Assembly (NCBI RefSeq): GCF_002210095.1
Contig: NZ_AQQR01000024.1
Span: forward strand, 1 to 56,578
DNA from: Marinibacterium profundimaris
GTDB lineage: Bacteria; Pseudomonadota; Alphaproteobacteria; Rhodobacterales; Rhodobacteraceae
Length of the DNA: 56,578 nucleotides
Direction: 5' to 3'
Shown piece after piece: positions 14,625-37,093 of this stretch. The notes beneath the pieces were generated by a model. It ran no database searches and had not been told where the DNA came from. It saw only the letters and a program-made list of their open reading frames with translations. The stretch's first letter is position 1, and each line of letters opens with the position of its first letter. The translations under genes were made by a program, and so were the position numbers.

Positions 14625-14742
14625 GCGCGGGTCGTCCCCCGTTGATCTTTTGCCTGGCCGCCGGACCGGACGCCGGGCAACAGCCGAATTTTTCATCACC
14701 AGCTTGTCACGAGTATAAATCTGCCGATAGTCTAGTTGCAAG

Positions 14743-14754
14743 ATTGTCGACAGT
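14743..14754. promoter_or_regulatory. Candidate GntR operator
   Basis: ATTGTCGACAGT contains the perfect 8-base palindrome TGTCGACA and resembles the ATTGT-NN-ACAAT shape used by several FCD-type GntR proteins. It lies in the divergent region between the GntR gene (starts 14624) and the class II aldolase gene (starts 14830). Confidence 0.45.
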
Positions 14755-14829
14755 TTTTGGATTCTGCGTCATGTCTTGCCACAACAATCAGCGATCGTGC
14801 CCCTGCCCGCCCCGCGAACGGAGACCCGA

Positions 14830-16553: not shown

Positions 16554-16576
16554 ATCAAGCAATGGAAAGTACGCCG

Positions 16577-19137: not shown

Positions 19138-19139
19138 CC

Positions 19140-20051: not shown

Positions 20052-20052
20052 G

Positions 20053-20130
20053 GCCGGCAGGACGCGCAACAAGACCAACAAAAACAACAACAAGACCAAA
20101 AAGAACCACCACTCGACCAACAAGGAACAC
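20053..20130 (+). promoter_or_regulatory. A/C-rich intercistronic leader upstream of the binding-protein gene
   Basis: From about 20066 to 20130 the plus strand is almost only A and C (repeated CAACAA, GACCAA, CCACCA units), in sharp contrast to the GC-rich surroundings. It would be an unstructured RNA segment just before the ribosome site of the solute-binding-protein gene. CA-rich stretches in this position are translation enhancers and GcvB-type sRNA targets in enteric dppA/oppA mRNAs. Whether the same holds here is inference. Confidence 0.5.
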
Positions 20131-20135
20131 ATGCA

Positions 20136-21719: not shown

Positions 21720-21739
21720 CTTCAGGGACATCCCCGACT

Positions 21740-21761
21740 GGGTCGCCCTCCGGGGCGGCCC
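21740..21761 (+). terminator. Intercistronic hairpin (partial terminator or RNA stabiliser)
   Basis: GGGTCGCC, a six-base loop, GGCGGCCC form an eight-pair stem with one G-U pair, 20 bases after the binding-protein stop and 24 bases before the next start. There is only a weak T tract (CCCTTTCC). It probably stabilises the upstream binding-protein message or attenuates downstream expression. Confidence 0.45.
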
Positions 21762-21785
21762 CCTTTCCCCGCAAGGACCGAATTC

Positions 21786-23234
21786 ATGACCACCACCGTC
21801 ATCCGCAACGCCGCCTACATCATCGCATGGGATGCCGAGGCCGACAGCCACACGCTGCTGCAGGGCCAGGACATCGCCTTTGACGAGACCGGCATCCTTC
21901 AGGTCGGCGGCCGCTACGACGGCCCCGCGGACGAGGAGATCGACGGCTCGGACCGCATGGTCAGCCCGGGGCTGGTCGACATCCATTCCCACCCCTCCTC
22001 CGAGGCCATGAACAAGGGCATGCTGGACGAGCTGGGCTCGCCCGGCCTGCGCATGTCCTCGCTTTACGAATTCATGCCGCTGTTCCGCCCCGACGGCCAG
22101 GGCACGCCCTTCGCCGTCAAGACCGCCTATTCCGAACTGGCGCTGTCGGGCGTGACCACTCTGGTCGATCTGTCGGTCGCCTATCCCGAATGGCTGTCGC
22201 TGGCCGAGGCCTCGGGCCTGCGCGTCGTCATCGCGCCGATGTACCGCTCGGCCCGCTGGTATACCGACACCGGCCATTCCGTCGATTACGAATGGGCCGA
22301 AGACGACGGGCGCGGCGCCATGCAGGTCGCCATGGACACGATCGACGCGGCCACCGCCCATCCCTGCGACCGGCTGACCGCCATGGTCGCGCCCAGCCAG
22401 ATCGACACCTGTTCCGAGGCACTGATAAAGGACAGCTATGCCGAGGCCGAGAAGCGCGGGATCAAGATGCAGATCCACGCCGCGCAATCCATGGTCGAAT
22501 TCAACGAGATCACCACCCGCCACGGCATGACCCCGATCCAGTGGCTGGACAGCCTCGGCGTGCTGACCGACCGCACGATCATCGGCCACGGCATCTTCCT
22601 CAACGACCTGCACCCCTGGCCGGCCTGGCCCGATGGCGCGGATTTCGAGATGCTCAAGGCCTCCGGCGCCGCCGTGGCCCATTGCCCGACCGTGTTCCAG
22701 CGCCGCGGCGTGACGATGCACACCTTCGGCAAGTACATCCGCAATGGCGTGCCCATGGGCATCGGCACCGACACCTATCCCCACAACATGCTGGAAGAGA
22801 TCCGGCATGCGCTGATAAATTCGCGCATCACCTCCAAGAACGTCTACGACCTGCGCACCACCGACGCCTTCGACGCCGCGACCGTGGGCGGGGCGAAGAT
22901 CCTGGGCCGGGACGACATCGGCAAGCTGGCGGTGGGCTGCAAGGCCGACCTCTTCATGGCCGACATCCGGCATCCGGCCATGCGCCCGCTGCGCGATCCG
23001 CTGGCCTCGCTGATCTATGTCGCCGCCGAACGCGCGGTGACGGACACCTTCGTCGACGGCGCCGGGCTGGTGCGCGGCGGCGAGCTGAAGACCTTTGACC
23101 TGGATGCCGCGCTCGACGGGCTGGAAGACGCGCAGCGCCGGGCCGAGGTGGAATTCCAGCAGCTCGACTTCCGCGACCGCACCCATGACCAGGCCGCGCC
23201 GATCAACTACGCACCCGCCAAGGAACCCTCATGA
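21786..23234 (+). CDS. Amidohydrolase family protein (TrzN/SsnA-like deaminase type)
   Basis: This 482-residue protein has [10 protein letters not shown] (first two metal histidines) near residue 66, KMQIHAAQS (third His), IIGHGIFL (His), and [16 protein letters not shown] (metal Asp), matching the SsnA/AtzA-like branch of amidohydrolases that deaminate or dechlorinate ring compounds. The substrate is not readable. The C-terminal sheet ([16 protein letters not shown]) is intact. It overlaps the next ATPase gene by four bases, so it is embedded in the importer operon. Confidence 0.87.
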
Positions 23235-24220
23235 CAGCGACCCCGCTTCTTGACGTCCGCGACCTGGCCATCGAGTTCAAGACCGAGGGCGGCGCCGTGC
23301 GCGCCGTCGACGGGGTCAGCTTCTCGGTGGACCGGGGCAAGACCATCGGCATCGTCGGTGAATCCGGCTGCGGCAAGTCGGTGACGTCTCTGGGCATCAT
23401 GGGGCTGATCCCCACGCCGCCCGGCCGCTATGCCGGCGGCGAGGTCCTGTTCGAGGGCCGCGACCTTCTGAAGATGTCCGCCCAGGAGCGGCGCGGGCTG
23501 CGCGGCGGACGGATGGGCATGGTCTTCCAGGAGCCGATGACATCGCTCAACCCGGTCTACACGATCGGCGCGCAGATCATCGAATGCCTGAAGGCCCACG
23601 GCATGCGCAACGCCCGCGAGGCGCGCGACCGTGCGGTCGAACTGCTGGATCTCGTCCGCCTGCCCTCGCCCTCGTCCCGCGTCGACGATTATCCGCACCA
23701 GCTTTCAGGGGGCCAGCGCCAGCGCGTGATGATCGCCCTGGCGCTGGCCAACAACCCCGACCTGCTGATCGCGGACGAGCCCACCACCGCGCTTGACGTG
23801 ACGATCCAGGCGCAGATCCTCGACCTGATGCGCGACCTGTCGGACCGCACGGGGGCCGCGATCATGCTGATCACCCACGACCTCGGCGTCGTGGCCGAAA
23901 CCTGCGACGACGTGGTCGTCATGTATGCCGGCAAGGTCGTCGAACGCGCCCCGGCAAAGGACCTCTTCGACGGTCCGATGCATCCCTACACGCTGGGTCT
24001 CATGGCCGCCGTGCCGCGGCTGGATACCGATGCCGACCGTCTCGAAACCATCCCGGGTGCTGTTCCTCCGCCCTGGGCCATGCCAGCGGGCTGCCGATTT
24101 GCCTCGCGCTGCCCGCTGGCGACGGACCAATGCCGCCAGTCGCCGCCGCCCCTGCGCGAGATCGCCACGAACCGTCTTGTCGCCTGCTGGCGCGCCCCCA
24201 TCGAGGAGATCGCCGCATGA
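23231..24220 (+). CDS. Dpp/Opp-type ABC ATPase (DppD-like)
   Basis: The 329-residue ATPase has Walker A GESGCGKS near residue 42, Q-loop [12 protein letters not shown], signature [15 protein letters not shown], Walker [15 protein letters not shown]-loop THDLGVV, and the oligopeptide-family C-terminal extension with Cys residues ([14 protein letters not shown]). It should dimerise with the next gene product to power the importer. Start overlaps the previous stop by four bases. Confidence 0.93.
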
Positions 24221-25296
24221 AGCCCAATGTCCTCGATGTCTCCGGCCTGACCAAGCACTTCACCCTCGGAGGCGGCCTGTTCGGCCGCAAGAAGGGTGTC
24301 GTGCAGGCCGTCTCGGATGTCTCCTTTTCGGTGGCAGGGGGCGAGACCCTGGCGATCGTGGGGGAATCCGGCTGCGGCAAGTCCACCACCGGGCGCGCCC
24401 TGCTGCGCCTGCTGGAGCCCACCTCCGGCTCGGTGAAGCTGGACGGAGAAGAGGTCACCGGCCTCTCGCCCGGCCGGCTGCAGGCGTTGCGGCGCAACAT
24501 GCAGATGGTGTTCCAGGACCCCTTCGGCTCGCTCAATCCCCGCATGACCGTGCGCGAGACGCTGATGGAGCCGCTGCTGCTGCACAATGTCGCCACCGGC
24601 AAGCGCGCCCACGAGGCCACCGCGCGGCTGCTTGAAACCGTCGGGCTGGCGGCCCATCACGCCGACCGCTATCCGCATGAATTCTCGGGCGGGCAGCGCC
24701 AGAGGATCTGCATCGCCCGCGCCATCGCCACGCGGCCCCGGCTGATCGTCTGCGACGAGCCGGTCTCGGCGCTCGACGTGTCGGTCCAGGCCCAGGTGGT
24801 GAACCTGCTGCAGGACCTGCAACGCGAATTCGGCATGGCCTATGTCTTCATCTCGCACGATCTTTCGGTGGTGCGTCACATCGCCGACCGCGTGGCCGTC
24901 ATGTACCTTGGGCGCGTCGTCGAAGAGGCGCCTGCGGCGCAGCTCTTCGCCGATCCGCGCCATCCCTACACGCGCGCCCTGATCGAGGCCGCGCCCCGGC
25001 CGGTGCCCGGCCTGCGCATCGCCGCCGAGCCGCCCAAGGGCGAGGCGCCTTCTGCGCTGAACCCCGGCCCCGGCTGTGCCTTCGCGCCCCGCTGCCCCCT
25101 GGCCACCGATCTCTGCCGGACGACGCGCCCCGCGCTGGAACCGGCCGGCGCGGCGGGCCGGGTCGCCTGTCACCATTCCGAAACCGCCGCCGGGCTTTCC
25201 GTGGCCGAGGCACCGCCGCAATCGCCGCAACTGGCCGCGCGGCTGGCGGTCATGGCCAGGGCCCGCGCCGCGCAGGCCAGCGGAACCCCGGCATGA
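24217..25296 (+). CDS. Dpp/Opp-type ABC ATPase (DppF-like)
   Basis: The 359-residue second ATPase begins [15 protein letters not shown]. It has Walker [11 protein letters not shown]-loop [14 protein letters not shown], signature [14 protein letters not shown], Walker [18 protein letters not shown]-loop SHDLSVV and the Cys-rich extension [14 protein letters not shown]. The [13 protein letters not shown] insertion before the first helix is typical of DppF/OppF. ATG 24217 overlaps the DppD-like stop (ATGA). The C-terminus has an extra Ala/Pro-rich tail of about 35 residues. It is the last gene of the operon and convergent with the FkbM gene. Confidence 0.93.
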
Positions 25297-25308
25297 GCAC
25301 GCCGGGGT

Positions 25309-26163
25309 TCAGACGCCCCCGAAGGTCATCCCCGCCGGCAGTGCCACCGCGTCCTTGCGGTAGAACACGTAGGTCGGCGCGATCCACCTGAACGCCCTGT
25401 CGTCGCCCGGCGTATCCAGCGGCCCAAGCGCCAGCGCGCCGGTATCCGACCTCAGCAGCGCGCGGGCACCGCCCCAGTCCGGGCCCAGGATCGCGGCAAG
25501 GTCGTCCACCCCGGCGTAACATTCGCACAGGATGACGCGCGGCGGCTCTTCGGACAGAAGCCGCGCGGCGCCCCGCAGCACCGCGTGTTCGGCCCCCTCG
25601 GCATCGATTTTCCAAAGATCGCCGGCACTGCCGTTGTCGAACACCTGGTCCAGCCGCGACGTGCGGACCGTCTGCCTCCGCAGCCTGTCGCCGAACACCT
25701 TCGGGAACTGCGCCACCTGTTCTGCCGACAGCGTATGACCCTGGTTGTGGCTTTGCGACAGGATGATCTCGGCCATGCCATCGCAATCGCTCAGCGCGAT
25801 CCCGTGCACCTCGACCGAGGGCACCGCCATGGCCCGCAGACGGTCGGCCAGGCTTGCCACCGGCTCGAAGGCGATGACCCGCGCGGCGCCCAAAGACAGC
25901 ATTTCCAGCGCCGTCATGCCGATGTTGGCCCCGATATCCAGGCAGACATCGCCGTCGCGGACGAACGTTTCGAACAGCTTGTGATCGATATCGGCCTGCG
26001 GATGCGGCAGCCCGGTCAGCGCCCGCAGCACGTACCGCACCTCGTGCGGGTTGGAGAGGTCGAAGGACACCTCGTGACCGCAGATCTCCATCCGCAGGGG
26101 CCCCCTGTAGGAAATGCTGCCTTCAAGCTCGGAAACGTCGTTCAAGACCAGTCCCTTCCGCAT
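25309..26163 (-). CDS. FkbM family methyltransferase
   Basis: This 284-residue protein has SAM motif I VCLDIGANIGMTALEM near residue 75, ARVIAFEPVASLADRL (post-I acidic residue), and the FkbM-typical DLWKIDAEGAEHAVLRGA near residue 187. Members methylate hydroxyls of sugars and natural products. The N-terminal region (SYRGPLRMEICGHEVSFDL) may be a small accessory domain. ATG 26163 is chosen over a TTG three codons upstream. It stands alone, convergent with the Dpp-like operon. Confidence 0.85.
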   Translation of the reverse strand: MRKGLVLNDVSELEGSISYRGPLRMEICGHEVSFDLSNPHEVRYVLRALTGLPHPQADIDHKLFETFVRDGDVCLDIGANIGMTALEMLSLGAARVIAFEPVASLADRLRAMAVPSVEVHGIALSDCDGMAEIILSQSHNQGHTLSAEQVAQFPKVFGDRLRRQTVRTSRLDQVFDNGSAGDLWKIDAEGAEHAVLRGAARLLSEEPPRVILCECYAGVDDLAAILGPDWGGARALLRSDTGALALGPLDTPGDDRAFRWIAPTYVFYRKDAVALPAGMTFGGV

Positions 26164-26298
26164 ACCGCCCAAATCACGTGTACGGATTGCGGGTGCCTGT
26201 CTATCGGCGCGGCGTCAATGCCCTGAAGGCGCACGGCACGGGACAGTTGTAGCGGCGACCGGCCCTGCGCGCGGGCCGCCGCCTTCGGTCGCGGCGCG

Positions 26299-26853
26299 CT
26301 AACGGCGCCGGGCCAGGGGCGGCCACATCCGGGCAAAGACCCCGTCGCGCAGGATCAGACCGTGCAGCAGGGCCGCGCCGATGTGGATCGCGATCAGGGC
26401 CGCAATCGCGTAGGCCCCGTAGAAATGCAAGGCCTTGGCGGCGTTGGCCAGCGCCTCGGATCGCGGCACCAGCGTGCCGATCCCAAGCGCGTCGAGCCCC
26501 TCGATCGGAAAGCGTCCGGCCCGCACGCGGATGTAGCCGGCCAGCGGCATCACCAGCAGCAAGGTGTACAGCAGCACATGCGACACGCGCGCCGCCATTG
26601 CCTGAAGCGGGTGAAGCGTTTCGGGCACGGGCGGTGGCGGCCGGAGCCAGCGATAGGCCAGGCGCAGCAGCACCAGCAGGAACAGGATCACGCCGATGTT
26701 CTTGTGAAACACGAACAACGTGTTCTGCACCGGCCGGGCCAGCCCGTCCTGGATCATGATGAAACCTGCCGGAATCGTCAGCAGCACGAACAGCGCCACG
26801 ATCCAGTGCAACAGCCGCGCCGGCGTGCGGTAGTCCTGCGAGGGGTCGGTCAC
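26299..26853 (-). CDS. Cytochrome b561-type membrane protein
   Basis: This 184-residue protein with four TM helices is of the bacterial cytochrome b561 (CybB) family. Candidate haem-b ligands are His16 (ARLLHWIVALFVLL), His50 (FVFHKNIGVILFLL), and two histidines in the last helices (LHFYGAYAIAALIAIHIGAALLHG). Such proteins oxidise ubiquinol or shuttle electrons to periplasmic partners. It is monocistronic and divergent from the CDP-alcohol phosphatidyltransferase gene. Confidence 0.9.
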   Translation of the reverse strand: MTDPSQDYRTPARLLHWIVALFVLLTIPAGFIMIQDGLARPVQNTLFVFHKNIGVILFLLVLLRLAYRWLRPPPPVPETLHPLQAMAARVSHVLLYTLLLVMPLAGYIRVRAGRFPIEGLDALGIGTLVPRSEALANAAKALHFYGAYAIAALIAIHIGAALLHGLILRDGVFARMWPPLARRR

Positions 26854-26996
26854 GGGGAGTCTCCTCCTGCTTTACCCAGGGTCAGGGTAGCCCGCCGGGC
26901 CCGCCGATCAAGCGCGCTGTGGCCATGGCCGGCCGACAGGGCCTGTCGGTGCCCGCGCGCCTTGACCCCTGTCCGCATGCGCTAGAACTATGTCAC

Positions 26997-27731
26997 ATGA
27001 GCGTAACCTTCGAAGCGAAACCCCTGCAGGGCCGGACCCTTGAGCAGACCGGGCGGCGCCGCACCGGGCTGGTGCCGGGCATCGCGGCGGCGCTGGTCGC
27101 CTGGGCCATGGCGCAGATGCTGGTCTTTCCCTCGGTGCCGGTCACCGGCTGGGTGCCGTCGCTGGTGCTGCTGCTGGCCGGGATCGCGGCGATCACGTCC
27201 CTGATGGCCCGCCATTACCCGCATCCCGCCTTCGGCTGGGCCAATACGGTCACGCTGGTGCGGCTGGGCCTTGCGGTGTCGCTGGTGACGCCGCTGCTGG
27301 CGGGCATGCCGGCGGGCTGGGCCGTGGCGCTCCTGGGCGGCGTGGCGCTGGCGCTTGACGGCGTCGACGGCTGGCTGGCCCGGCGGCACGGGCGCACATC
27401 CGCCTTCGGCGCGCGGTTCGACATGGAGGTCGACTCGCTTCTGTCGGTGGTGCTGGCGGTTCATGCCATGCTGGGCGGCCCGGCCGGGCCCGTCCTGCTG
27501 GTGCTGGGGCTGACGCGCTATGTCTTTGTCGCCGCGACCTGGGCCCTGCCTTGGCTCGCCGCGCCGCTGCCCGAAAGCCTCCGGCGCAAGGCGGTCTGCG
27601 TGCTGCAACTGGCGACGCTGATCCTGCTTCAACTGCCGGGCTGGCCGCCCGCGCTGGCACTGGCGGCCTCGGCGGCCCTTCTGTGGTCCTTTGCGGTGGA
27701 TATCCTGTGGCTGGCCGGGCGGCGCGCGTGA
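26997..27731 (+). CDS. CDP-alcohol phosphatidyltransferase family protein
   Basis: This 244-residue integral membrane enzyme carries the CDP-alcohol phosphotransferase signature DGVDGWLARR followed by GARFDMEVDS (pattern D..DG..AR...G...D...D) near residues 120-145, in the usual place between TM helices. It would transfer a phosphoalcohol from CDP-alcohol (CDP-diacylglycerol or similar) to an acceptor, so a phospholipid-type head group is expected. It is first of seven genes with four-base overlaps. An extended N-terminus with two TM helices precedes the catalytic part. ATG 26997 lacks a strong Shine-Dalgarno. Confidence 0.88.
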   Translation: MSVTFEAKPLQGRTLEQTGRRRTGLVPGIAAALVAWAMAQMLVFPSVPVTGWVPSLVLLLAGIAAITSLMARHYPHPAFGWANTVTLVRLGLAVSLVTPLLAGMPAGWAVALLGGVALALDGVDGWLARRHGRTSAFGARFDMEVDSLLSVVLAVHAMLGGPAGPVLLVLGLTRYVFVAATWALPWLAAPLPESLRRKAVCVLQLATLILLQLPGWPPALALAASAALLWSFAVDILWLAGRRA

Positions 27732-29365
27732 CGCGCCCGGTCTCTCCCTGGGCCGCGACGGGCGGCGCCGTGGTGCTGTTCCTGGTGCTGATCCAGCCCA
27801 ACCATCCCGGCGCGATGACCTGGGGCGCGCTCAGGGTCTTTCCGCTGGAACTGCCGGTGATCCTGCTGCTGCTCCTGGCACTGGGAACGGGCGTCGGAGG
27901 TCGGATCCTCCGCGCGCTTCTGGTGCCGGTGCTCGTGCTGATCTTCGCGCTGAAAGTCGCGGATTACGCGATGTTCACCGCCCTTGGACGCGGGTTCAAC
28001 CCGGTGGCCGACGTGGCGCTGATCGACGCCTCCGTCCGGCTTCTGGCCTCCAGCATCGGGCCGGTCCGGACCGGTGCGGTGATGCTGGGCGCTCTGGGCG
28101 CGACCCTGCTGGTCGCGGCCGCGCTCTGGTGGGCGATGGGCTGCTGGATGCGGCTTGCCCCGCGCCGCCCTGCCCCGCGTCTGGCCGCGGGGGTCGTGGC
28201 GGCCCTGGCCGGGCTGGTGATGGTGGCCGAGGTCGGCCACACCATGGGGCGCTGGAGCCTGCCGCAGCCGCCGCCCGGCACCGCCTTTACCGCCCGCGTG
28301 GGCGCCGAACGGATGGCGCTTGCGCGGCGGACATGGGCAGACCTGCGCGCCTTCGACCTGGCCGCGCGGAGCGATCCCTTTGCCGGGCAGGCCGGGCTCT
28401 ACGATCTCGTCGACACCGACGTGCTTGTGCTTTTCGTCGAAAGCTACGGACGCACCAGTCTCGACACGCCGTTCTACGCGCAGACCCATCGCGCCACGCT
28501 GGCACGGGCCGAGGCAGCCCTGAGCGAAGCCGGGCTGGCCATCCGCTCGGGCCTTCTGCGCGCGCCCACCCGGGGCGGGCAAAGCTGGCTGAGCCACACC
28601 ACCTTCGCCACCGGGCTCTGGACCGACGACCAGGCGCGGTACCTCGCGGCCCTGGGCAGCGGGCGGCAGGGGCTGTTCCACCTGGCCCGCGACGCCGGGT
28701 TTCACACCGCCGCCGTGATGCCCGCGATCACGCAGGACTGGCCCGAGGCGCTTGGCATGGGCTTCGACACGATCCTCGCCGCGGAGGATCTTGGCTATGC
28801 GGGCCGGACGTTCAACTGGGTCACGATGCCGGATCAGTTCACCCTGGCCGCACTCGACCGGATCCTGCGCGGCCCCGGACGCACGCAGCGCGTCTTTGCC
28901 CAGGTGGCGCTGATCTCGTCCCATGCGCCGTGGGTGCCGGTGCCGCGGATGCTGGACTGGACCGACCTGGGCGACGGCACGGTCTTTGACGCCATGGCCG
29001 GGGCCGGCGATCCGCCCGAGGTCGTCTGGCGCGATCCCGACCGCGTGCGGGCCGCCTATCGCGACTCGATCGACTATGCCCTGCAGACGGTCTTCGCCTA
29101 TGTCGCGCGGCAGGCGGACGACCCGCCGCTGGTCTTCGTCCTGGGCGATCATCAGGCCGCCGGCTTCGTCGCCATGGACGACCGCGCCGAGGTGCCGATC
29201 CACGTGATCGGCCCCGCGCATCTGGTGGACCGGGTCGCGGCCTGGGGCTGGACCGACGGCCTGATCCCGGACGGGACCCTGCCGGCCGTCCCGATGGACG
29301 AGATGCGCGGCCGGATCCTGCGCACCTTCTCCGGCCCGACACGTGACACGGAGACCCGGACATGA
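27728..29365 (+). CDS. Sulfatase / LTA-synthase-like membrane hydrolase-transferase
   Basis: The 545-residue protein has about four to five N-terminal TM helices (to about residue 180) followed by a periplasmic alkaline-phosphatase-superfamily domain. Key patterns are DVLVLFVESYGRTSLD (first metal-binding strand), APTRGGQSWLSHTTFATGL (candidate Ser/Thr nucleophile region), FAQVALISSHAPWVPVP, and FVLGDHQAAGF (C-terminal Asp-His metal ligands). LtaS/OpgB/EptA relatives transfer phospho-head groups from phospholipids to sugars or lipids outside the membrane. Start is GTG 27728 overlapping the previous stop. With the CDP-alcohol enzyme it suggests assembly and transfer of a polar head group. Confidence 0.83.
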   Translation: MTRPVSPWAATGGAVVLFLVLIQPNHPGAMTWGALRVFPLELPVILLLLLALGTGVGGRILRALLVPVLVLIFALKVADYAMFTALGRGFNPVADVALIDASVRLLASSIGPVRTGAVMLGALGATLLVAAALWWAMGCWMRLAPRRPAPRLAAGVVAALAGLVMVAEVGHTMGRWSLPQPPPGTAFTARVGAERMALARRTWADLRAFDLAARSDPFAGQAGLYDLVDTDVLVLFVESYGRTSLDTPFYAQTHRATLARAEAALSEAGLAIRSGLLRAPTRGGQSWLSHTTFATGLWTDDQARYLAALGSGRQGLFHLARDAGFHTAAVMPAITQDWPEALGMGFDTILAAEDLGYAGRTFNWVTMPDQFTLAALDRILRGPGRTQRVFAQVALISSHAPWVPVPRMLDWTDLGDGTVFDAMAGAGDPPEVVWRDPDRVRAAYRDSIDYALQTVFAYVARQADDPPLVFVLGDHQAAGFVAMDDRAEVPIHVIGPAHLVDRVAAWGWTDGLIPDGTLPAVPMDEMRGRILRTFSGPTRDTETRT

Positions 29366-30339
29366 GCCGCGCCTGGATCCTCCCGGCGCAGGTGGCGGTC
29401 ACGGCGCTTCTGTTCGTGCTGCTCTGGCGGCAGCTTGACGGGGCCGAGGTCGCCCGGAAATTGTCGGGCGCCGCGCCGGGATGGCTTCTGGCGGCTCTTG
29501 TGGCGCTGATCCTTCAGACGGCGCTGTCGGCCCTGCGCTGGCAGATCGTCGCGCGGGCCTTCGGGATCGGGATGCGGCTGCGCCAGGCGATGGCCGAGTA
29601 TTTCCTGGCGCAGGCGGTCAACCAGTCGCTGCCCGGCGGCGTGCTGGGCGATGTGGGCCGGGCGGTCCGGGCGCGCGGCGCGGCGGGTCTTGCGCGGGCC
29701 GGCCAGTCGGTTCTGGTGGAACGGCTCTGGGGGCAGGCCGCCCTGTTCGCACTGCTGGTCGCAGGCGTGGCCGGGGTCACGCTGGCGCCCGGGGGCCTGC
29801 GCCTGCCCGACCCGCTGGTTCTGGGCGTGGCGCTTGCGGCGCTGATCGCGGGCGCGGCGGGGCTGATCCTGATGCGGGCGCGCGCCCTGCCGGACCGGGC
29901 CATGCGGATGCGGGATGCGCTGCTGCTGCCGGGCAGCTGGCCGTGGCCCGCGCTTCTCAGCCTTGGCACCGCCACGATGAACCTGCTGGCCTTCGCCTTC
30001 TGCGCGCGGGCCACCGGCACGGATCTGGGCCCGGCGGCGGTGCTGGCGCTGGTGCCGGTGATCCTCTTCACCATGGTCCTGCCCGTCTCGGTCAGCGGCT
30101 GGGGCCTGCGCGAGGGCGCGGCCGCGGCGCTCTTCCCGCTGGCGGGCGCCAGCGCCGAGGCGGGGCTTGCCGCCAGCGTGGCCTTCGGCCTCGTCTTCCT
30201 GGTCAGCGCCCTGCCGGGCCTGCCCGTCCTGATCTTCACCCGCCGGGCCGCCCGCCCGGCCGACCATCCCACCCCTCTCCCCGCCTGTCCCGGTTTGTCC
30301 GGCACCCCCCAGGCGGCCAGCACGGAGGCACCATCATGA
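29362..30339 (+). CDS. Lysylphosphatidylglycerol synthase TM-region (YbhN/UPF0104) protein
   Basis: This 325-residue polytopic protein has eight or so TM helices, with family marks ALRWQIVARAFG near residue 60, EYFLAQAVNQSLPGGVLGDVGRA near residue 75, and VLPVSVSGWGLREGAAAALF near residue 235. It has the flippase-like part of MprF without the aminoacyl-transferase domain. YbhN-type proteins often accompany lipid-linked glycan or head-group pathways. Here it may flip the product of the two upstream enzymes. The last about 30 residues (Pro/Ala/Thr-rich) extend past the usual family end. Confidence 0.85.
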   Translation: MSRAWILPAQVAVTALLFVLLWRQLDGAEVARKLSGAAPGWLLAALVALILQTALSALRWQIVARAFGIGMRLRQAMAEYFLAQAVNQSLPGGVLGDVGRAVRARGAAGLARAGQSVLVERLWGQAALFALLVAGVAGVTLAPGGLRLPDPLVLGVALAALIAGAAGLILMRARALPDRAMRMRDALLLPGSWPWPALLSLGTATMNLLAFAFCARATGTDLGPAAVLALVPVILFTMVLPVSVSGWGLREGAAAALFPLAGASAEAGLAASVAFGLVFLVSALPGLPVLIFTRRAARPADHPTPLPACPGLSGTPQAASTEAPS

Positions 30340-31334
30340 CATCACATCTTCACACCCGCCGCAGCATCCTGGGCGCCGGCGCCGCCGGGCTGACCCTGGC
30401 GGGGCTGGGCCTTGGCCCCCGCGCCGCCCAGGCGCAGGAGGCGGTGCGCCTGCAATTGTCCTGGCTCCACTCGGTGCAGTTCGGCGGCAGCTATATCGCG
30501 CAGCACAACGGCTGGTGGTCCGATCGCGGGCTTGACGTCGCGCTGGACCAGGGCGGCCCCAACGCCCCGGTGGAACCGCCGGTGGTCTCGGGCACGGCGC
30601 TGGTGGGGATCTCGGCCGCGGATTACACCGCCGCCGCCGCCGAACAGGGCGCGCCATTCCGCATCCTCGGCGTGGCCATGCAGAAGAACCCCTTCGTCAT
30701 CGCCTCGCTTCCCGGCAACCCGGTGAACCTGCCCGGCGATCTGGAGGGCAAGCGGATCGGCATGGCGCTGGCCAACACCCCGGTCCTGCAGGCGCTTTGC
30801 ACCCTCAACGACGTCGACATCGACGCGATCGAGGTGGTGCCCACGCAATATTCGGCGCAGCCGCTGGTCTCGGGCGAGGTCGATTGCCTGCTGTGCTGGC
30901 AGACCGACCTGCCGGTGGCCATGACCATGCAGGGGATCGACAATGTCACCATGCTGATGGCCGATCATGGCTATGCCGTGCATTCGCAGACCTACATCGC
31001 CACCGAGGACAGCCTGGCCAACCGCCGCGACCAGCTTGTCGCGCTGATGGCCGGCGAGGTGCAGGGATGGGAGGCCTATCGCCAGGACACCGCCGCCGCC
31101 GCCGCGCTGACGGTCGAGATGTATCCCGACGCCGGCCTGGACCTTCCCACGCAAGAGCTGCAGGCCGAGCGGCAGGTGCCGCTGATGTTTTCCGACCTCA
31201 CCGACACCCACGGCTTCGGCTGGTGGACGGACGAGACGGTCACCGCGAATATCGAAACCCTGGCCCTGCTGGGCCGCAACGTGACGCCGGACCTGTGGGA
31301 CCGTTCGATCCTCGAAGAGGTCCATGGCGCCTGA
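30336..31334 (+). CDS. THI5/NMT1-type ABC substrate-binding protein
   Basis: This 332-residue protein has a Tat-type signal (THTRRSILGAGAAGL, cleavage after AQAQ near residue 34), implying export folded. The mature part begins with LQLSWLHSVQFGGSYIAQHNGWW, the hallmark of THI5/NMT1-like binding proteins (ThiY, RibY, SsuA relatives), which bind pyrimidine, riboflavin-like or sulfonate ligands. The usual glycine-rich ligand loop is absent or altered (ISAADYTAAAAEQGAPF). It overlaps the neighbours on both sides, so the importer is embedded in the lipid operon. Ligand unknown. Confidence 0.88.
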   Translation: MTSHLHTRRSILGAGAAGLTLAGLGLGPRAAQAQEAVRLQLSWLHSVQFGGSYIAQHNGWWSDRGLDVALDQGGPNAPVEPPVVSGTALVGISAADYTAAAAEQGAPFRILGVAMQKNPFVIASLPGNPVNLPGDLEGKRIGMALANTPVLQALCTLNDVDIDAIEVVPTQYSAQPLVSGEVDCLLCWQTDLPVAMTMQGIDNVTMLMADHGYAVHSQTYIATEDSLANRRDQLVALMAGEVQGWEAYRQDTAAAAALTVEMYPDAGLDLPTQELQAERQVPLMFSDLTDTHGFGWWTDETVTANIETLALLGRNVTPDLWDRSILEEVHGA

Positions 31335-32124
31335 TCCGCATATCCCGGCCGAGGTGGTCTGCGAAGACCTCGCCAAGACCTTCGCGGACGGAACAGAGGT
31401 GCTGCGGCCCCTGTCGGTGACACTGCCCTCGGGCGGGACAACAGCGCTGGTCGGCCCGTCGGGCTGCGGCAAGTCCACGCTGTTGCGCATGATCGCCGGG
31501 CTGGAGCCGCCAAGCGCCGGGTCCCTGCGCATCGGCGGCGCGCCGCCCCGGGCCCTGCTGAAGCAGGCGGGCCTGTCGATGGCTTTCCAGGATCCGTCAC
31601 TGCTGCCCTGGCGGTCCGTGCGCGGCAATATCGAACTTGCGCTGAAGCTGGCGCGCCGGCCCGCCGCGCCGCAGGCCGTCGATGACCTGATCCGTCTGGT
31701 GGGCCTCGACGGCTTTGCCGGGGCCCGCCCCGCGACCCTGTCGGGCGGCATGCGCCAGCGCGCGGCGATTGCCCGTGCGATGGTGACCGAACCCCGGCTG
31801 CTGCTGCTCGACGAACCCTTCGGCGCCGTGGACGAGCTGACCCGCCGCCAGCTGGCCGAGGATCTGCCCCGCACCTGGGAGCCGCGCCAGACCACCACCC
31901 TTCTGGTCACCCATTCGATCACCGAGGCGGTGATGCTGTCGGACCGGATCCTCGTCTTCTCGCCCCGGCCCGCGACGCTGGTGGCCGATATCGCGGTCGA
32001 CCTGCCCAGGCCGCGCCGCGCCGCCCTGACCACCGATCCCGCCTTTCTGGGTCTGGCCGAACAGGTGGCGGCGGCCCTGGCCGAAGGCGTCGCGGGGGCA
32101 AACCGGCCCTGGGCCGCGCAATGA
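31324..32124 (+). CDS. ABC ATPase of the nitrate/sulfonate/taurine class
   Basis: The 266-residue ATPase has Walker A GPSGCGKST near residue 45, Q-loop MAFQDPSLLPWRSV (the LLPW motif is typical of SsuB/TauB/ThiZ), signature LSGGMRQRAAIARA, Walker B LLLLDEPFGAVDELTR, and H-loop THSITEAV. It overlaps the binding-protein gene by 11 bases and the permease gene by four. It energises import by the double permease. Confidence 0.92.
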   Translation: MAPDPHIPAEVVCEDLAKTFADGTEVLRPLSVTLPSGGTTALVGPSGCGKSTLLRMIAGLEPPSAGSLRIGGAPPRALLKQAGLSMAFQDPSLLPWRSVRGNIELALKLARRPAAPQAVDDLIRLVGLDGFAGARPATLSGGMRQRAAIARAMVTEPRLLLLDEPFGAVDELTRRQLAEDLPRTWEPRQTTTLLVTHSITEAVMLSDRILVFSPRPATLVADIAVDLPRPRRAALTTDPAFLGLAEQVAAALAEGVAGANRPWAAQ

Positions 32125-33707
32125 CGGCGGCCGCCACGGCGCACCGTCCGGGGAGGCACACGGCCCGGCGCTGGCAGGCGGCGGCGGGTCTTCTGCTGCT
32201 TCTGCTGGGCTGGGAATATGCCGGGCGGGCACTGAGCGGTGCCTTCATCCTCGCCGCGCCCAGCGAGGTGCTGGCCTGGACATGGCAGAACGCCGGGCTG
32301 ATGGGCCGCGCCATGGGCGAGACGCTGGGCAATGCCGTGCTTGGCTTCGTCTATGGCAATGCGGCGGCCGTGCTGTTGGCCTCGGTCGCGCTGCTCTGGC
32401 CCCGGACCGAGGCGCTGATCGGCGGTCTTGCGCTTTTGGTCTTCTGCCTGCCGCTGGTGGCGACCGGGCCGATCCTGCGCGTGCTCATGGGCCCCGGCGA
32501 CGGGCCGCAGATCGCGCTGGCCGCGCTGGCGGTCTATTACACGACGCTGGTGCCGCTGCTGGTCGGCCTGCGCGCCGCGCCGTCCAGCTGGTTCGACCTG
32601 GTGCGCAGCTACGGACGCGGACGCGGGGCCGAGCTGGTGCATGTGCGCGCCATGGCCGCCCTGCCCTATCTTTTCGCGGGCCTCCAGATCGCGGCGCCGG
32701 CGGCGATCCTGGGCGCCATGGTGGGCGAATTCACCGGGGCCGAGCGCGGGCTGGGCGTGCTGACCATCCGCGCGATGCGAGCGCTGGACGTGCCGGCGAC
32801 GTGGGCGCTGGCCAGCGTGTCGGCGGCGGTGGCGATCCTGGCCTATGCCGGTGTCGGATGGCTGGGCCGCAGGCTTTCGACCGCGCCGCCCCCGGTTCTG
32901 CTGGCCCCGCCGGCCGTGGCCGGGCGCCGTGGCGGCGGCGCGCTGGTGCAGGGCCTCGGTGTCGCGGTGCTGGCCCTGCTTCTGTGGTGGGGCGCGATGG
33001 AGGCCTTCGGGCTCAACCGCTTCTTCGCCAAGCGCCCCGGCGATGTCTGGGCCGCGCTGGTCACCGCGCCGGATGCCGCCGTCACGCGGGCGACGCTGGC
33101 CGTGGCCCTGCGGGAAACCGCCGCCTACGTGCTGCCCGGATACCTCGCCGGGCTGGCGATGGGCCTCGGGCTGGCGGTGGCGCTGGTGCTGCTGCCGGCG
33201 CTGGCCGCCGTGGCCATGCCGGTGGCCGTTGCCCTGCGATCCGTGCCGATCGTCACGACCGCCCCGCTCTTCGTGATGCTGCTGGGCCGGGGGGCCGTGG
33301 GCACGGTGGTGCTGGTCGCGGTGATGGTGTTCTTCCCCACCTTCGTGGCCTGCGCGCAGGGCCTGTCGCGCGCGCCGGGGCAGGCCAACGACCTCTTCGA
33401 CAGCTACGCGGCCGGGCGCCTGTCCCGGCTGATCCACCTGCGCCTGCCCGCCATGCTGCCCGCCTTCTTCGCCGCCGCACGCATGAGCGTTCCGGCCGCC
33501 GTCCTGGCCGTGACGGTGGTGGAATGGCTGGCCACCGGGCGCGGCATGGGCAGCCTGATGGCGATGTCGGCCTCGCTGTCGGATTACGACATGTTGTGGA
33601 GCACGGTCGTCGTGGTCTCTGTCCTGTCGGCCGCCTGCTATCTGGCCGTGGGCGGGGTGGAACGCCGGGTGCTGGCGGTCTACGCCCCCGAGCAGGGCGC
33701 GCGATGA
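32121..33707 (+). CDS. ABC permease with two fused permease domains (SsuC/ThiX-type)
   Basis: The 528-residue protein contains two tandem permease units. Unit 1 (about residues 20-255) has its coupling-loop region VHVRAMAALPYLFAGLQIAAPAAILGAMVGEF. Unit 2 (about 270-515) has LIHLRLPAMLPAFFAAARMSVPAAVLAVTVVEW at the matching place. Most members of this class are about 250 residues and work as homodimers. Here one polypeptide supplies both halves, and the halves have diverged. It has about 12 TM helices. It overlaps the ATPase and glycosyltransferase genes by four bases each. Confidence 0.9.
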   Translation: MTAAATAHRPGRHTARRWQAAAGLLLLLLGWEYAGRALSGAFILAAPSEVLAWTWQNAGLMGRAMGETLGNAVLGFVYGNAAAVLLASVALLWPRTEALIGGLALLVFCLPLVATGPILRVLMGPGDGPQIALAALAVYYTTLVPLLVGLRAAPSSWFDLVRSYGRGRGAELVHVRAMAALPYLFAGLQIAAPAAILGAMVGEFTGAERGLGVLTIRAMRALDVPATWALASVSAAVAILAYAGVGWLGRRLSTAPPPVLLAPPAVAGRRGGGALVQGLGVAVLALLLWWGAMEAFGLNRFFAKRPGDVWAALVTAPDAAVTRATLAVALRETAAYVLPGYLAGLAMGLGLAVALVLLPALAAVAMPVAVALRSVPIVTTAPLFVMLLGRGAVGTVVLVAVMVFFPTFVACAQGLSRAPGQANDLFDSYAAGRLSRLIHLRLPAMLPAFFAAARMSVPAAVLAVTVVEWLATGRGMGSLMAMSASLSDYDMLWSTVVVVSVLSAACYLAVGGVERRVLAVYAPEQGAR

Positions 33708-34753
33708 CACCTGCGGCCTTCGCGATCCCCGGCGATATGACCACGCTGACCGGCGGCTACATCTACGAACGCCGCCTGCTGGAGGGGCTGCGCGCGGCCG
33801 GGCGCGACGTGACGCACCTGGCCCTGCCTTCGGGCTTTCCCGATCCGTCAGGGGCCGAGACGGAAGCGGCTGCCGCGATGCTGCAGGCCGTCGGGCCGGA
33901 TCGGGTGCTGATCCTCGACGGGTTCGTCTCAGGCGCGATGGAAACCGCCCGGCTGGCCCGGGTGCGGGCGCCGATGGTTGCCATCGTGCACCATCCCCTG
34001 GCACTGGAGGAAGGCCTGTCCGAGGCCCGGCGCGCCCATCTCTACCGGACCGAGCGCGACAACCTCGCGCTGGTCCGCCACGTGATCGTGCCCAGCCCGC
34101 ACACGGCCCGGACGCTGGTCGACCGCTACGGCGTGCCGGGCGACAGGATCACCGTGGCCCGCCCCGGGGTCGACCCGGCCTCGGGCCCGCCGGACCCGGT
34201 GGATCCGCCCCTGATCCTGTCGGTCGGGATCCTGCATCCGCGCAAGGGGCACGACGTGCTGATCGCGGCGCTTGAGCATATCCGCGCCCTGCCCTGGACC
34301 TGCGTGATCGTCGGGCGTGACTGGGATACAGACCATGCCCGCGCGCTGGCCCGGCAGGCGGCGCAGACGGGGCTTGGCGCGCGGCTGAGGCTGGCTGGAG
34401 AGGTCGAACTGCCGCAGCTGCAGCGCCTCTACCGGCAGGCGACGCTCTTTGCGCTGGCCACGCGCTACGAGGGCTACGGCATCGTCTTTGCCGAAGCGCT
34501 GCGGCACGGGTTGCCGGTGATCAGCTGCCGGGTGGGCGCGGTGCCCGATACGGTGCCCCATGGCACCGGCCGGCTGGTGCCGCCAGACGATCCCCGGGCC
34601 TTCGCCGCCGCGCTGCAAGAGCTGCTTGCCACGCCTGCCGCCCTGCGCGACTGCCGCCTGGCCGCCCGCCTGGCCGGCGACGGCCTGCCGGGATGGCCCG
34701 AGACCGCGCGCCTTGCCGGCGACGTGCTGGAGACGGTGGCGCGCGACGGCTGA
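33704..34753 (+). CDS. Family 4 glycosyltransferase (GT-B fold)
   Basis: The 349-residue glycosyltransferase has an N-terminal glycine-rich acceptor loop (PGDMTTLTGGYIYERRLLEGL), IVHHPLALEEGL, and the C-terminal donor domain with LSVGILHPRKGHDVLIAALEHI near residue 175 and the EX7E-like ALATRYEGYGIVFAEALRHGLPVISC near residue 250. These support a retaining, nucleotide-sugar-dependent GT4 enzyme. It is cytosolic or membrane-peripheral. As last gene of the seven-gene operon it could glycosylate the lipid acceptor built by the first three products. Confidence 0.9.
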   Translation: MTPAAFAIPGDMTTLTGGYIYERRLLEGLRAAGRDVTHLALPSGFPDPSGAETEAAAAMLQAVGPDRVLILDGFVSGAMETARLARVRAPMVAIVHHPLALEEGLSEARRAHLYRTERDNLALVRHVIVPSPHTARTLVDRYGVPGDRITVARPGVDPASGPPDPVDPPLILSVGILHPRKGHDVLIAALEHIRALPWTCVIVGRDWDTDHARALARQAAQTGLGARLRLAGEVELPQLQRLYRQATLFALATRYEGYGIVFAEALRHGLPVISCRVGAVPDTVPHGTGRLVPPDDPRAFAAALQELLATPAALRDCRLAARLAGDGLPGWPETARLAGDVLETVARDG

Positions 34754-34775
34754 CCCCGGCGCCCGGCCGCCCGGC

Positions 34776-35969
<1,194 letters not shown>

Positions 35970-36294
35970 TGTCTTTCCTGTTTGTCAGAAGTGTCGTTCG
36001 AGGCTCGTGTCCGGCTTCCCCGATCATGACCGCATCGCGCCCGCTCTGCATGACTTTTGACACGCTCACCGCGATACGACCCCCCGGTCCCCTGCCGCGC
36101 CGTCCGCCTGACACCGGGCCCGCAGGCCCCGCGGTGCCAGAGGCCTCGGCGCGCACGCCGACACTTAATCAAATTAAATCAATGATTTGCACATTTCTCC
36201 AGGCACCCAAAGCCCCCCAACGGCAGATCACGCGCTGGTCTGTTGGCAGAGAAATGATATCAACCAACCCGATCAGCAGGTGCAACGAGTAGCT
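35970..36294. other. Gene-free stretch between pcaF and the ArdC-type leader
   Basis: No convincing gene is seen. Base use changes from GC-rich to AT-rich at about 36160. There is a short perfect inverted repeat AAATCA-A-TGATTT at 36177-36189 and a GC-rich imperfect hairpin around 36110-36135. The switch in composition probably marks the edge of inserted DNA. Confidence 0.5.
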
Positions 36295-36335: not shown

Positions 36336-36435
36336 GTCTGGCGGGGTTCCGGACGGAGCCCACCACCCACCACGGGGTTGATTTCAGGCCCGTTCTCCGA
36401 TCCGCGCGCGTGCGCTTCCTCAGACATCGGAGAAC
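36313..36435 (+). promoter_or_regulatory. Structured leader of the ArdC-type gene with ribosome-site-sequestering hairpin
   Basis: Three hairpins can be drawn: GTCC/GGAC (36313-36323); GGGTTCC, loop GGAC, GGAGCCC (36344-36361); and a perfect 10-pair stem GTTCTCCGAT (36392-36401) with ATCGGAGAAC (36426-36435) around a 24-base GC-rich loop. The last arm contains the GGAGA ribosome site of the gene starting at 36440, so the stem would hide it. This predicts control of translation, or the folded form could serve when the strand is single-stranded during conjugation. Confidence 0.6.
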
Positions 36436-36439
36436 AGTT

Positions 36440-37093
36440 ATGGCCAAGTCCAGGTTCGACGCCGCGGCGTCGATCACGAACGAACTCATTGCGATCATCG
36501 ACCGGGGTGTTCTGCCCTGGCGCAGACCCTGGCAGGTCGGCGGCAGTTTCGTGCCTCTCAGGCAGAACGGGGAGCCCTACCAGGGGATCAACAACTTCCT
36601 GCTGACCATGCGTACCCTGATGGCGGGGTATGTCTCGCCCTACTGGATGACGCTCAGGCAGCCGAACGAACCCGACGCAAGGATCGTGAAGGGGTCGAAA
36701 TCGTCGATCGTCATCTACTACGGCACGGCCGGACAAGACCCGACCGAGGATGCGTCCGAGGACACGGGCCCCGAAGACCGCAAGGCCGTCCCCTTCCTCA
36801 AATCCTACCGCGTCTTCAATGCCGACCAGATCGAAGGGCTCGACGCCCGGTTCCATCCCGAGCCGGCCGAGGTCCCAGCCACGCCCGAACGCGCGCCAAT
36901 CCCGCACATGCAAGGCTTCTTCGAGGCCATCGAAGCGTCTGTCAGTTTCACGGGCCGTGAAGCGTGTTATCTGCCCGCGCTCGACAAGGTCTGCGTGCCG
37001 CAGATCGAGCTCTTCGAGGACCCGCGCAGGGGCCATCGGCCTCGGCCAGCTCATGCCGGAGACGGCACAGGAACTGTGCGTCGATCCGCATGA
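36440..37093 (+). pseudogene. ArdC-like antirestriction protein, 3'-truncated
   Basis: Residues 1 to about 195 match the N-terminal ssDNA-binding (ArdC_N/DUF1738) part of plasmid antirestriction proteins: ITNELIAIIDRGVLPWRRPW, YQGINNFLLTMRTLMAGYVSPYWMT, KGSKSSIVIYYG, PFLKSYRVFNADQIEGL. The family continues with LPALDKVCVPQIELF into a zincin-like peptidase domain (HELxH). Here the match stops after IELFEDPRR at about 37025, and the remaining residues are out-of-frame transglycosylase sequence. The peptidase domain is therefore gone. ATG 36440 has GGAGA upstream. It is a scar of a conjugative element. Confidence 0.85.

What the first reader, a model, noticed from the sequence alone, without database searches (positions are those of the whole stretch)
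26997..34753. Seven-gene operon fusing a lipid head-group pathway to a THI5-type importer
CDP-alcohol phosphatidyltransferase, LtaS-like sulfatase, YbhN/LPG-synthase-TM protein, THI5/NMT1 binding protein, ABC ATPase, double permease and GT4 glycosyltransferase follow one another with four-base overlaps (11 bases once). Such overlap argues for one process: import a small heterocycle or similar ligand and attach it, or a head group derived from it, to a glycolipid that is flipped and processed outside the membrane. I know of no characterised pathway with this set.
Basis: partly seen in the sequence, partly recalled or inferred. Interest (0 to 1): 0.8.

Follow-up and report, generated by a model that had tools for sequence, protein, structure and literature searches.

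The report
Lipid operon with swapped-in importer
A bacterium carries a seven-gene operon in which an importer appears to stand in for the enzymes that relatives use to build a ring compound from GTP, which the neighbouring genes then seem to sugar-coat, attach to a membrane lipid and move outside the membrane.

Summary
The operon is real: seven plus-strand genes, overlaps 4,4,4,11,4,4 bases. Its order recurs in Rhodobacterales, e.g. on Dinoroseobacter shibae pDSHI05. In 80 related lipid loci the slot filled here by the THI5-type ABC importer holds the importer (29), a PTPS-like/RibD_C/zinc-ADH/methyltransferase/RibA biosynthesis set (24) or a sugar-type ABC (9); 18 show no supplier, 12 of them cut short. 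Among 394 family genomes 65 have this GT4: 29 with only the binding protein, 30 only the PTPS-like gene, 3 both, 3 neither; those 3 are importer loci cut by contig ends. The biosynthesis set also sits with the same CDP-alcohol transferase in Rhizobiaceae, a gammaproteobacterium and Actinobacteria, with YbhN and the LtaS-like gene in Rhizobiaceae. Most likely the importer brings in what sister loci make from GTP; GT4 glycosylates it, the transferase puts it on a lipid, and the LtaS-like enzyme moves the phospho-head group to an outside acceptor. Import-for-synthesis is well supported by comparison; the chemistry is inferred. My paper searches found no description.

The parts
26299..26853 (-). 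cytochrome b561-type membrane protein, divergent neighbour; a relative is present in 62 of 80 loci
   Evidence: PF01292 5.8e-30; conservation; a cytochrome b gene is also in the biosynthetic clusters of Rhizobiaceae and Thiodictyon (25-36% identical where labelled)
26997..27731 (+). CDP-alcohol phosphatidyltransferase (PT); full D-x2-DG-x2-AR-x8-G-x3-D-x3-D motif
   Evidence: PF01066 7.9e-13; motif residues invariant in 10 of 10 aligned; 41-47% identical to PTs in PTPS clusters of Streptomyces, Microbacterium, Agrobacterium, Thiodictyon
27728..29365 (+). LtaS/OpgB/EptA-like membrane enzyme of the alkaline phosphatase superfamily (SULF), predicted phospho-head-group transferase
   Evidence: PF00884 7.7e-9; AlphaFold model pLDDT 94.7 best matches LtaP, MCR-1, LtaS, GacH; E238, S286, H399, H475 invariant in 57 aligned sequences and D474 in at least 90%
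29362..30339 (+). YbhN / LPG-synthase-TM family membrane protein
   Evidence: PF03706 2.1e-33; present in 69 of 80 loci
30336..31334 (+). NMT1/THI5-type substrate-binding protein (SBP)
   Evidence: PF09084 7.7e-36; model closest to thiamin-, formylaminopyrimidine- and PLP-binding folds, PQQ-binding PqqT at rank 24
31324..32124 (+). ABC importer ATPase
   Evidence: PF00005 8.5e-33
32121..33707 (+). ABC importer double permease (two BPD_transp_1 stretches in one protein)
   Evidence: PF00528, two stretches, 5e-31
33704..34753 (+). GT4-family glycosyltransferase shared by importer and biosynthetic loci
   Evidence: PF13692/PF00534/PF13439; found in 65 of 394 family genomes, each with importer or PTPS-like genes

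Best explanation
The operon is the import-fed version of a widespread, uncharacterised pathway that builds a lipid-borne head group from a GTP-derived nitrogen heterocycle. (1) SBP-ATPase-permease imports the heterocyclic alcohol (pterin-like or a ribitylamino-pyrimidine relative) that sister loci make with a RibD_C reductase, a PTPS-like protein, a zinc-ADH, a methyltransferase, and often RibA and an IMPase-type phosphatase. (2) GT4 adds a sugar. (3) PT joins the alcohol to phosphatidyl from CDP-diacylglycerol. (4) YbhN helps carry the lipid across the membrane. (5) The LtaS/OpgB-like enzyme moves the phospho-head group to an outside acceptor, in Rhodobacterales possibly periplasmic glucan; cytochrome b561 may set the redox state of the heterocycle. 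Shown by sequence comparison: gene content, conserved order, interchange of importer and biosynthesis, shared PT and GT4, folds. Inferred: ligand, every reaction, lipid and acceptor.
For: In 80 loci SBP (29), PTPS (24) and sugar-ABC binding protein or second permease (9) never share a locus. In 65 GT4 genomes of 394: SBP only 29, PTPS only 30, both 3, neither 3 (all three with the permease beside GT4 at a contig end). GT4 follows YbhN directly in 13 importer-free loci, with a 4-base overlap in 9. Epibacterium ulvae (L158) has PT-SULF-YbhN-GT-FkbM-cytb561-PTPS-MT-RibD_C-RibA-ADH-IMPase in one run. Agrobacterium pAt, Peteryoungia and Rhizobium SL42 have cytb, RibD, MT, GT4, PTPS, ADH, RibA, PT, YbhN, SULF side by side on mixed strands; Thiodictyon has most of them; Microbacterium and Streptomyces have PT with ADH-PTPS-GT4-MT. 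On the SULF tree one clade for importer loci is rejected (AU p 5e-5), while on the GT4 tree they are one side of a branch, as if the ABC-GT4 cassette moved between lipid loci. The best fold matches of SBP bind heterocycles; SULF resembles head-group transferases before sulfatases. OpgG and OpgH relatives are each near the locus in 30 of 80.
Against: No reaction or ligand was tested. With relatedness controlled on well-supported branches only 2 independent importer/biosynthesis contrasts remain (5 on all branches), so that test has no power. Three genomes carry both modules (G065, G352, G390), though G065's importer may be broken. One importer locus, L108, has sugar-ABC ATPase and permease relatives (53%, 30%) beside GT4. 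22 of 65 GT4 genomes lack SULF; 18 of these have an OpgH-type GT2 instead, so PT/SULF is not the only partner. No glucan gene is annotated within about 10 kb of the Agrobacterium, Peteryoungia and Thiodictyon clusters, and Actinobacteria are not expected to make such glucans (recalled), so the glucan acceptor is weak. In the window's genome OpgG is on other contigs. RibA is also a housekeeping gene (18 of 18 genomes). Lower-ranked fold matches of SBP bind taurine, sulfonates or bicarbonate. SULF's putative nucleophile is Ser; no NCBIfam model named the protein.
Confidence: 0.6

Rival explanations
1. Two neighbouring but separate pathways: importer or biosynthesis plus GT4 yield a free glycosylated pterin (as cyanobacteria and green sulfur bacteria make; recalled), while PT, SULF and YbhN decorate envelope glycans with an ordinary head group; they cluster through shared regulation.
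For: GT4 plus supplier occur without SULF in 22 of 65 genomes. GT4 beside a PTPS gene suits pterin glycosylation. PT-SULF occur with a sugar ABC and without GT4 in 9 of 80 loci (PT seen in 8 of the 9).
Against: PT is beside the PTPS gene in Rhizobiaceae, a gammaproteobacterium and Actinobacteria, 10 of 18 plasmid records viewed, which shared regulation in Rhodobacterales does not explain; single 12-gene run in L158.
Confidence: 0.17
2. The ABC system is an ordinary salvage importer (thiamine precursor, flavin or similar vitamin) that happens to be co-transcribed; the complementarity with PTPS genes reflects clade structure.
For: The family includes thiamin and formylaminopyrimidine binders and RibXY takes up riboflavin (passages of PMC4418817). 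Importer-type GT4s are one side of a branch; few independent contrasts.
Against: No Rfam match up to E 1 in window 25000-36000, only tRNAs in six relatives. PERM-GT4 overlap in 19 of 19. SBP and PTPS exclude each other in 59 of 62 GT4 genomes that have either.
Confidence: 0.12
3. The imported ligand is the sugar or polyol partner rather than the heterocycle, and the pathway's heterocycle is dispensable.
For: A sugar-type ABC replaces the module in 9 loci; an IMPase-family phosphatase is in 18 of 24 biosynthetic loci.
Against: The best fold matches of SBP are heterocycle binders; sugar-ABC loci lack GT4 in 9 of 9 whereas importer loci keep it in 28 of 29.
Confidence: 0.08

Closest known systems
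OpgB/MdoB phosphoglycerol transferase acting on phosphatidylglycerol (E. coli periplasmic glucans; PMC3818809, passages seen)
   Same: A membrane-anchored enzyme moves the phospho-head group of a phospholipid to a periplasmic glucan; the phospholipid itself is made by a CDP-alcohol transferase (recalled). OpgG/OpgH relatives lie beside many of these loci.
   Different: Here PT and transferase go with GT4, YbhN, cytochrome b561 and an importer or heterocycle-biosynthesis module; head group not shown; no OpgB or LtaS model matched in NCBIfam.
LtaS/LtaP/GacH and EptA/MCR-type transferases
   Same: Predicted fold of the catalytic part.
   Different: 10-14% identity in the Foldseek alignments; putative Ser rather than Thr nucleophile (my reading of the alignment; Thr recalled).
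ThiXYZ and RibXY importers (RibXY: passages of PMC4418817)
   Same: Binding-protein family and importer make-up; heterocycle ligands.
   Different: Double permease in one protein, coupling to GT4, no riboswitch found in the window, ligand unknown.
SCO6650-type PTPS homologue of Streptomyces (PDB 3d7j) and clusters with it
   Same: Sister loci carry this PTPS-like protein with RibD_C, ADH, methyltransferase, often RibA, GT4 and PT.
   Different: I found no paper on the function of such a cluster; the window lacks it and has the importer instead.

Membership tests
CDP-alcohol phosphatidyltransferases (PF01066) | Pfam match over cut-off and catalytic motif D-x2-DG-x2-AR-x8-G-x3-D-x3-D (motif recalled) | tested here: met
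   (49.5 bits, cut-off 22); motif residues invariant in 10 of 10, matched by regex in window
CDP-alcohol phosphatidyltransferases (PF01066) | identity of the alcohol acceptor | not testable with these tools
   no NCBIfam equivalog reaches its cut-off
LtaS/OpgB/EptA-type phospho-head-group transferases | alkaline phosphatase-superfamily fold closest to head-group transferases | tested here: met
   ranks 1-23 are LtaP, MCR-1, LtaS, 3lxq, 2w8d, GacH and PbgA; first sulfatase-type entry at rank 24
LtaS/OpgB/EptA-type phospho-head-group transferases | conserved metal ligands and nucleophile | tested here: inconclusive
   E238, S286, H399, H475 invariant in 57, D474 at least 90%, but their places were not checked against coordinates
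LtaS/OpgB/EptA-type phospho-head-group transferases | match to a named NCBIfam family such as OpgB or LtaS | tested here: not met
   0 families
NMT1/THI5 binding proteins (PF09084) | Pfam match over cut-off and fold | tested here: met
   (124.4 bits, cut-off 20.5)
ThiXYZ or RibXY transporters | pyrimidine or flavin ligand | not testable with these tools
   no binding data
ThiXYZ or RibXY transporters | thiamine or FMN riboswitch upstream (not universal) | tested here: not met
   no Rfam match up to E 1 in window 25000-36000
PTPS-like (SCO6650-type) biosynthesis cluster with lipid genes | PTPS-like gene present in the genome | tested here: not met
   Searches (E 1e-5; E 1e-15): none in G000
PTPS-like (SCO6650-type) biosynthesis cluster with lipid genes | shared GT4 and PT relatives | tested here: met
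   GT4 40-46% identical to the eight distant cluster members, PT 41-47% to four
Periplasmic-glucan decoration genes | linked to OpgG/OpgH | tested here: inconclusive
   not in the window (OpgG on other contigs); adjacent in D. shibae; each near 30 of 80 loci; none annotated near the PT-bearing Rhizobiaceae clusters viewed

The most novel reading that the evidence does not exclude
Bacteria of three classes in two phyla make a hitherto unknown kind of membrane lipid whose head group is a glycosylated pterin-like or ribityl-pyrimidine compound derived from GTP; in the proteobacterial versions a cytochrome b561 keeps it redox-active and an LtaS-like enzyme moves it onto an outside polymer. The organism of this window, Dinoroseobacter shibae and many relatives have given up synthesis and scavenge the heterocycle from their neighbours with a dedicated importer, a public-goods relation for a lipid head group.
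Probability: 0.38. Interest if true: 0.9.

Novelty: new variant of a known kind. Interest (0 to 1): 0.77.

Why it matters
If right, a heterocycle from GTP becomes a phospholipid or glycan head group, a chemistry I found described for no bacterium, and a cluster found in two phyla and annotated piecemeal as queuosine, riboflavin and phospholipid genes gets a common role. The swap of synthesis for import makes it directly testable: the importer's ligand names the product, and the biosynthetic genes of one strain should replace the importer of another.

Tried and rejected
Riboswitch as a clue to the ligand: none in the window, only tRNAs in six relatives. SULF by sequence in the PDB: no match up to E 1. 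RibA as a marker of the biosynthetic type: rejected, a RibA occurs in 18 of 18 genomes; RibA of biosynthetic loci shows a KMR(A/V)Y segment in 17 of 17, so I saw no sign of a changed product. PTPS as an ordinary QueD/PTPS: doubtful; the loci read HGAT in 24 of 24 and FGPAQ in 22 (two were called too short) where QueD has HGH and a Cys (motif recalled). The window's own FkbM methyltransferase (25309-26172) as part of the system: rejected, no gene of the 80 loci has it as best label, best match 32% and 62 bits; a different FkbM family is common there. Shared 8-mers between cytb561 and PT in 59 intergenic regions: at most 9 of 59, no regulator motif. Streptomyces plasmid SULF homologues as linked genes: the two seen are not next to the PTPS cluster. 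Papers: SCO6650, PTPS with CDP-alcohol transferase (35), GCH II with 6-pyruvoyl (60), pterin with Rhodobacterales (61), CDP-alcohol transferase with sulfatase (90): none; pterin with periplasmic glucan: one listing, a pig gut study (89).

Genes were called by my own script and labelled by best BLASTP hit, over 70 bits in the counts, against proteins of Pfam-checked families. 18 of 80 loci showed no supplier module (5 of them with GT4); 12 of these 18 lack full flanks. Sugar-ABC loci were counted by binding protein or second permease; ATPase labels alone (11 A or B loci besides L108) were not counted. OpgH-type GT2 counts drop three weaker hits, G380, G392 and G435 (38-40% identity, E about 1e-83), all with SULF; if they are counted, genomes with both rise from 1 to 4. 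Trees used 62 of 80 SULF rows and 53 GT4 rows, both quick searches. Plasmid PTPS records: 18 of 20 viewed.
Full report
What is there. Upstream and divergent is a cytochrome b561-type gene, 26299-26853; downstream and convergent is a 3-oxoadipyl-CoA thiolase. Below, PT is the CDP-alcohol transferase, SULF the LtaS-like protein, SBP the binding protein.

Conservation. SULF is found in 12 of 121 genomes, the own included. Stretches of up to 20 kb show PT-SULF-YbhN-SBP-ATP-PERM-GT4 in several genera. Gene calls and labels are mine. The full run, with or without an extra FkbM or YbhN gene, stands in 17 of the 29 importer loci; two more lack YbhN, one lacks GT4, and nine runs stop earlier (gap over 200 bases, missing or displaced genes). 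Annotated copies sit on Dinoroseobacter shibae pDSHI05 and on Alloyangia and Tateyamaria plasmids.

The slot between YbhN and GT4 has alternatives. Of the 80 loci, 29 hold the SBP importer, 24 a PTPS-like gene, 9 a sugar-type ABC system (counted by its binding protein or second permease), 5 GT4 alone and 13 none; no locus holds two. One importer locus, L108, also has sugar-ABC ATPase and first-permease relatives, and the Tateyamaria plasmid has carbohydrate ABC permeases about 4 kb past GT4, so exclusion of sugar ABCs is not absolute. The PTPS loci also hold RibD_C (22 of 24), a methyltransferase (21), zinc-ADH (19), an IMPase-family gene (18) and GTP cyclohydrolase II (17); in importer loci these are 0 of 29 except the IMPase, 1 of 29. 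Families. In 13 importer-free loci GT4 follows YbhN directly, with a 4-base overlap in 9. Epibacterium ulvae (L158) has one co-directional run PT-SULF-YbhN-GT4-FkbM-cytb561-PTPS-MT-RibD_C-RibA-ADH-IMPase.

Whole genomes. In 394 family genomes (own included) GT4 occurs in 65, SBP in 34, PTPS in 34. GT4 genomes: SBP only 29, PTPS only 30, both 3, neither 3; Fisher 8e-12 within GT4 genomes, not corrected for relatedness. The three with neither have the permease beside GT4 at a contig end, so each of the 65 has one module or a piece of it. SBP without GT4: 2 genomes (65% and 38% identical); PTPS without GT4: 1. Of the three with both, G065 has a stop inside its SBP match and its permease called in two pieces, so its importer may be decaying; G352 has two GT4 copies, one by each module. 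A second exchange appeared: 42 of the 65 have SULF and not the 626-residue OpgH-type GT2, 18 that GT2 and no SULF, 1 both, 4 neither (three weak GT2 hits in SULF genomes not counted). NCBIfam names the GT2 as MdoH.

History. On the SULF tree the three supplier types need at least 8 changes and importer against PTPS 5; branches with strong support force 3 for importer, 2 for PTPS and 2 for sugar ABC, each group against the rest. One clade for importer loci is rejected, AU p 5e-5. On the GT4 tree importer-type GT4s are one side of a branch (SH-aLRT 91), PTPS-type GT4s, including the most distant, on the other. If the distant ones root the tree, synthesis came first and an ABC-GT4 cassette later spread among PT-SULF loci. 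Against over-reading: on well-supported branches only 2 independent contrasts remain, too few for a test.

Beyond Rhodobacterales. Plasmid records with the PTPS-like gene number 20; I opened 18. PT is beside it in 10, mdoH in 2, neither in 6, of which three are lone PTPS genes in Streptomyces (unannotated ones labelled). Agrobacterium pAt reads cytb-RibD-MT-GT4-PTPS-ADH-RibA-PT-YbhN-SULF (mixed strands); Peteryoungia and Rhizobium SL42 add FkbM; the gammaproteobacterium Ca. Thiodictyon has ADH-PTPS-GT4-MT-cytb-RibD-PT and an unannotated SULF at 31-34%; Microbacterium has PT-ADH-PTPS-GT4-MT-YbhN and RibD; Streptomyces fungicidicus has PT, ADH-PTPS-GT4-MT, creatininase and RibA. The window's PT is 41-47% identical to four of these PTs. 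PT thus belongs to the heterocycle cluster across phyla, the strongest sign that heterocycle and lipid meet in one product.

Folds. The SBP model (pLDDT 87) is nearest to thiamin-, formylaminopyrimidine- and PLP-binding proteins, with PQQ-binding PqqT at rank 24 and taurine, sulfonate and bicarbonate binders after it. The SULF model (pLDDT 94.7) is nearest to LtaP, MCR-1, LtaS and GacH; E238, S286, H399 and H475 are invariant in 57 sequences, D474 nearly so. E. coli OpgB moves phosphoglycerol from phosphatidylglycerol to periplasmic glucan (PMC3818809, passages), a precedent for PT plus SULF, and OpgG and OpgH relatives are each near 30 of 80 loci. But the PT-bearing Rhizobiaceae clusters viewed have no glucan gene annotated nearby, so the acceptor stays open.

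Mechanism. Shown by comparison: importer and GTP-derived-heterocycle genes are alternatives serving the same GT4, PT, YbhN and SULF. Inferred: the importer's ligand is that pathway's product or a late intermediate; GT4 glycosylates it; PT links it to phosphatidyl; YbhN and SULF act across or outside the membrane; cytochrome b561 tunes redox. The sugar-ABC loci, which lack GT4 in 9 of 9, would then import the ready glycoside, a guess. RibD_C and RibA point to a ribitylamino-pyrimidine start, the PTPS-like protein to a pteridine; the latter lacks the usual HGH and Cys (recalled motif), so its reaction may be new.

Novelty. Every enzyme family is known; the combination is not, in the papers I could search. 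I file it as a new variant of lipid head-group pathways and keep the bolder reading, a new lipid class, as the novel case.

Noticed in passing
window 13929-25296: GntR/FCD regulator, class II aldolase, 2-hydroxyacid dehydrogenase, two amidohydrolases and an Opp/Dpp-type ABC importer with family-5 binding protein: looks like a catabolic import operon.
   Followed up: partly
window 36410-37093: ORF with the ArdC N-terminal domain (PF08401), a possible plasmid or mobile-element remnant near the thiolase.
   Followed up: no
L090 (PACL01000046.1): A 9.5-kb contig of a MAG titled Fulvimarina sp. NAT173 encodes the operon at 99-100% identity, although most other hits are titled Rhodobacterales: the title may be a misassignment, or binning mixed genomes.
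   Followed up: no
L028 and L170 (genome G065): This genome has both modules; its SBP match carries an internal stop and its permease is called in two pieces, while PTPS, MT, RibD_C, RibA, ADH and IMPase genes lie on another contig.
   Followed up: partly
L059 8881-13679; L176 8934-12300: Relatives of the SBP-ATPase-permease system (47-68% identical SBPs) with no GT4 or lipid gene labelled in the stretch, one beside a CoA-transferase III.
   Followed up: no
L027 4787-7231: One 814-residue open frame joins an OpgH-type GT2 with a C-terminal methyltransferase domain.
   Followed up: no
L193, L199, L201 (Streptomyces plasmids): Lone SCO6650-type PTPS genes with none of the pathway genes beside them, near cupin, MEKHLA, MBL-fold or discoidin proteins.
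   Followed up: no
loci L138, L144, L150, L154, L163 and four others: PT-SULF loci with a MalE/Ugp-like sugar ABC system instead of importer or biosynthesis, with an endonuclease/exonuclease/phosphatase-family gene in 6 of 9, OpgH in 7, OpgG in 5, and GT4 in none.
   Followed up: partly
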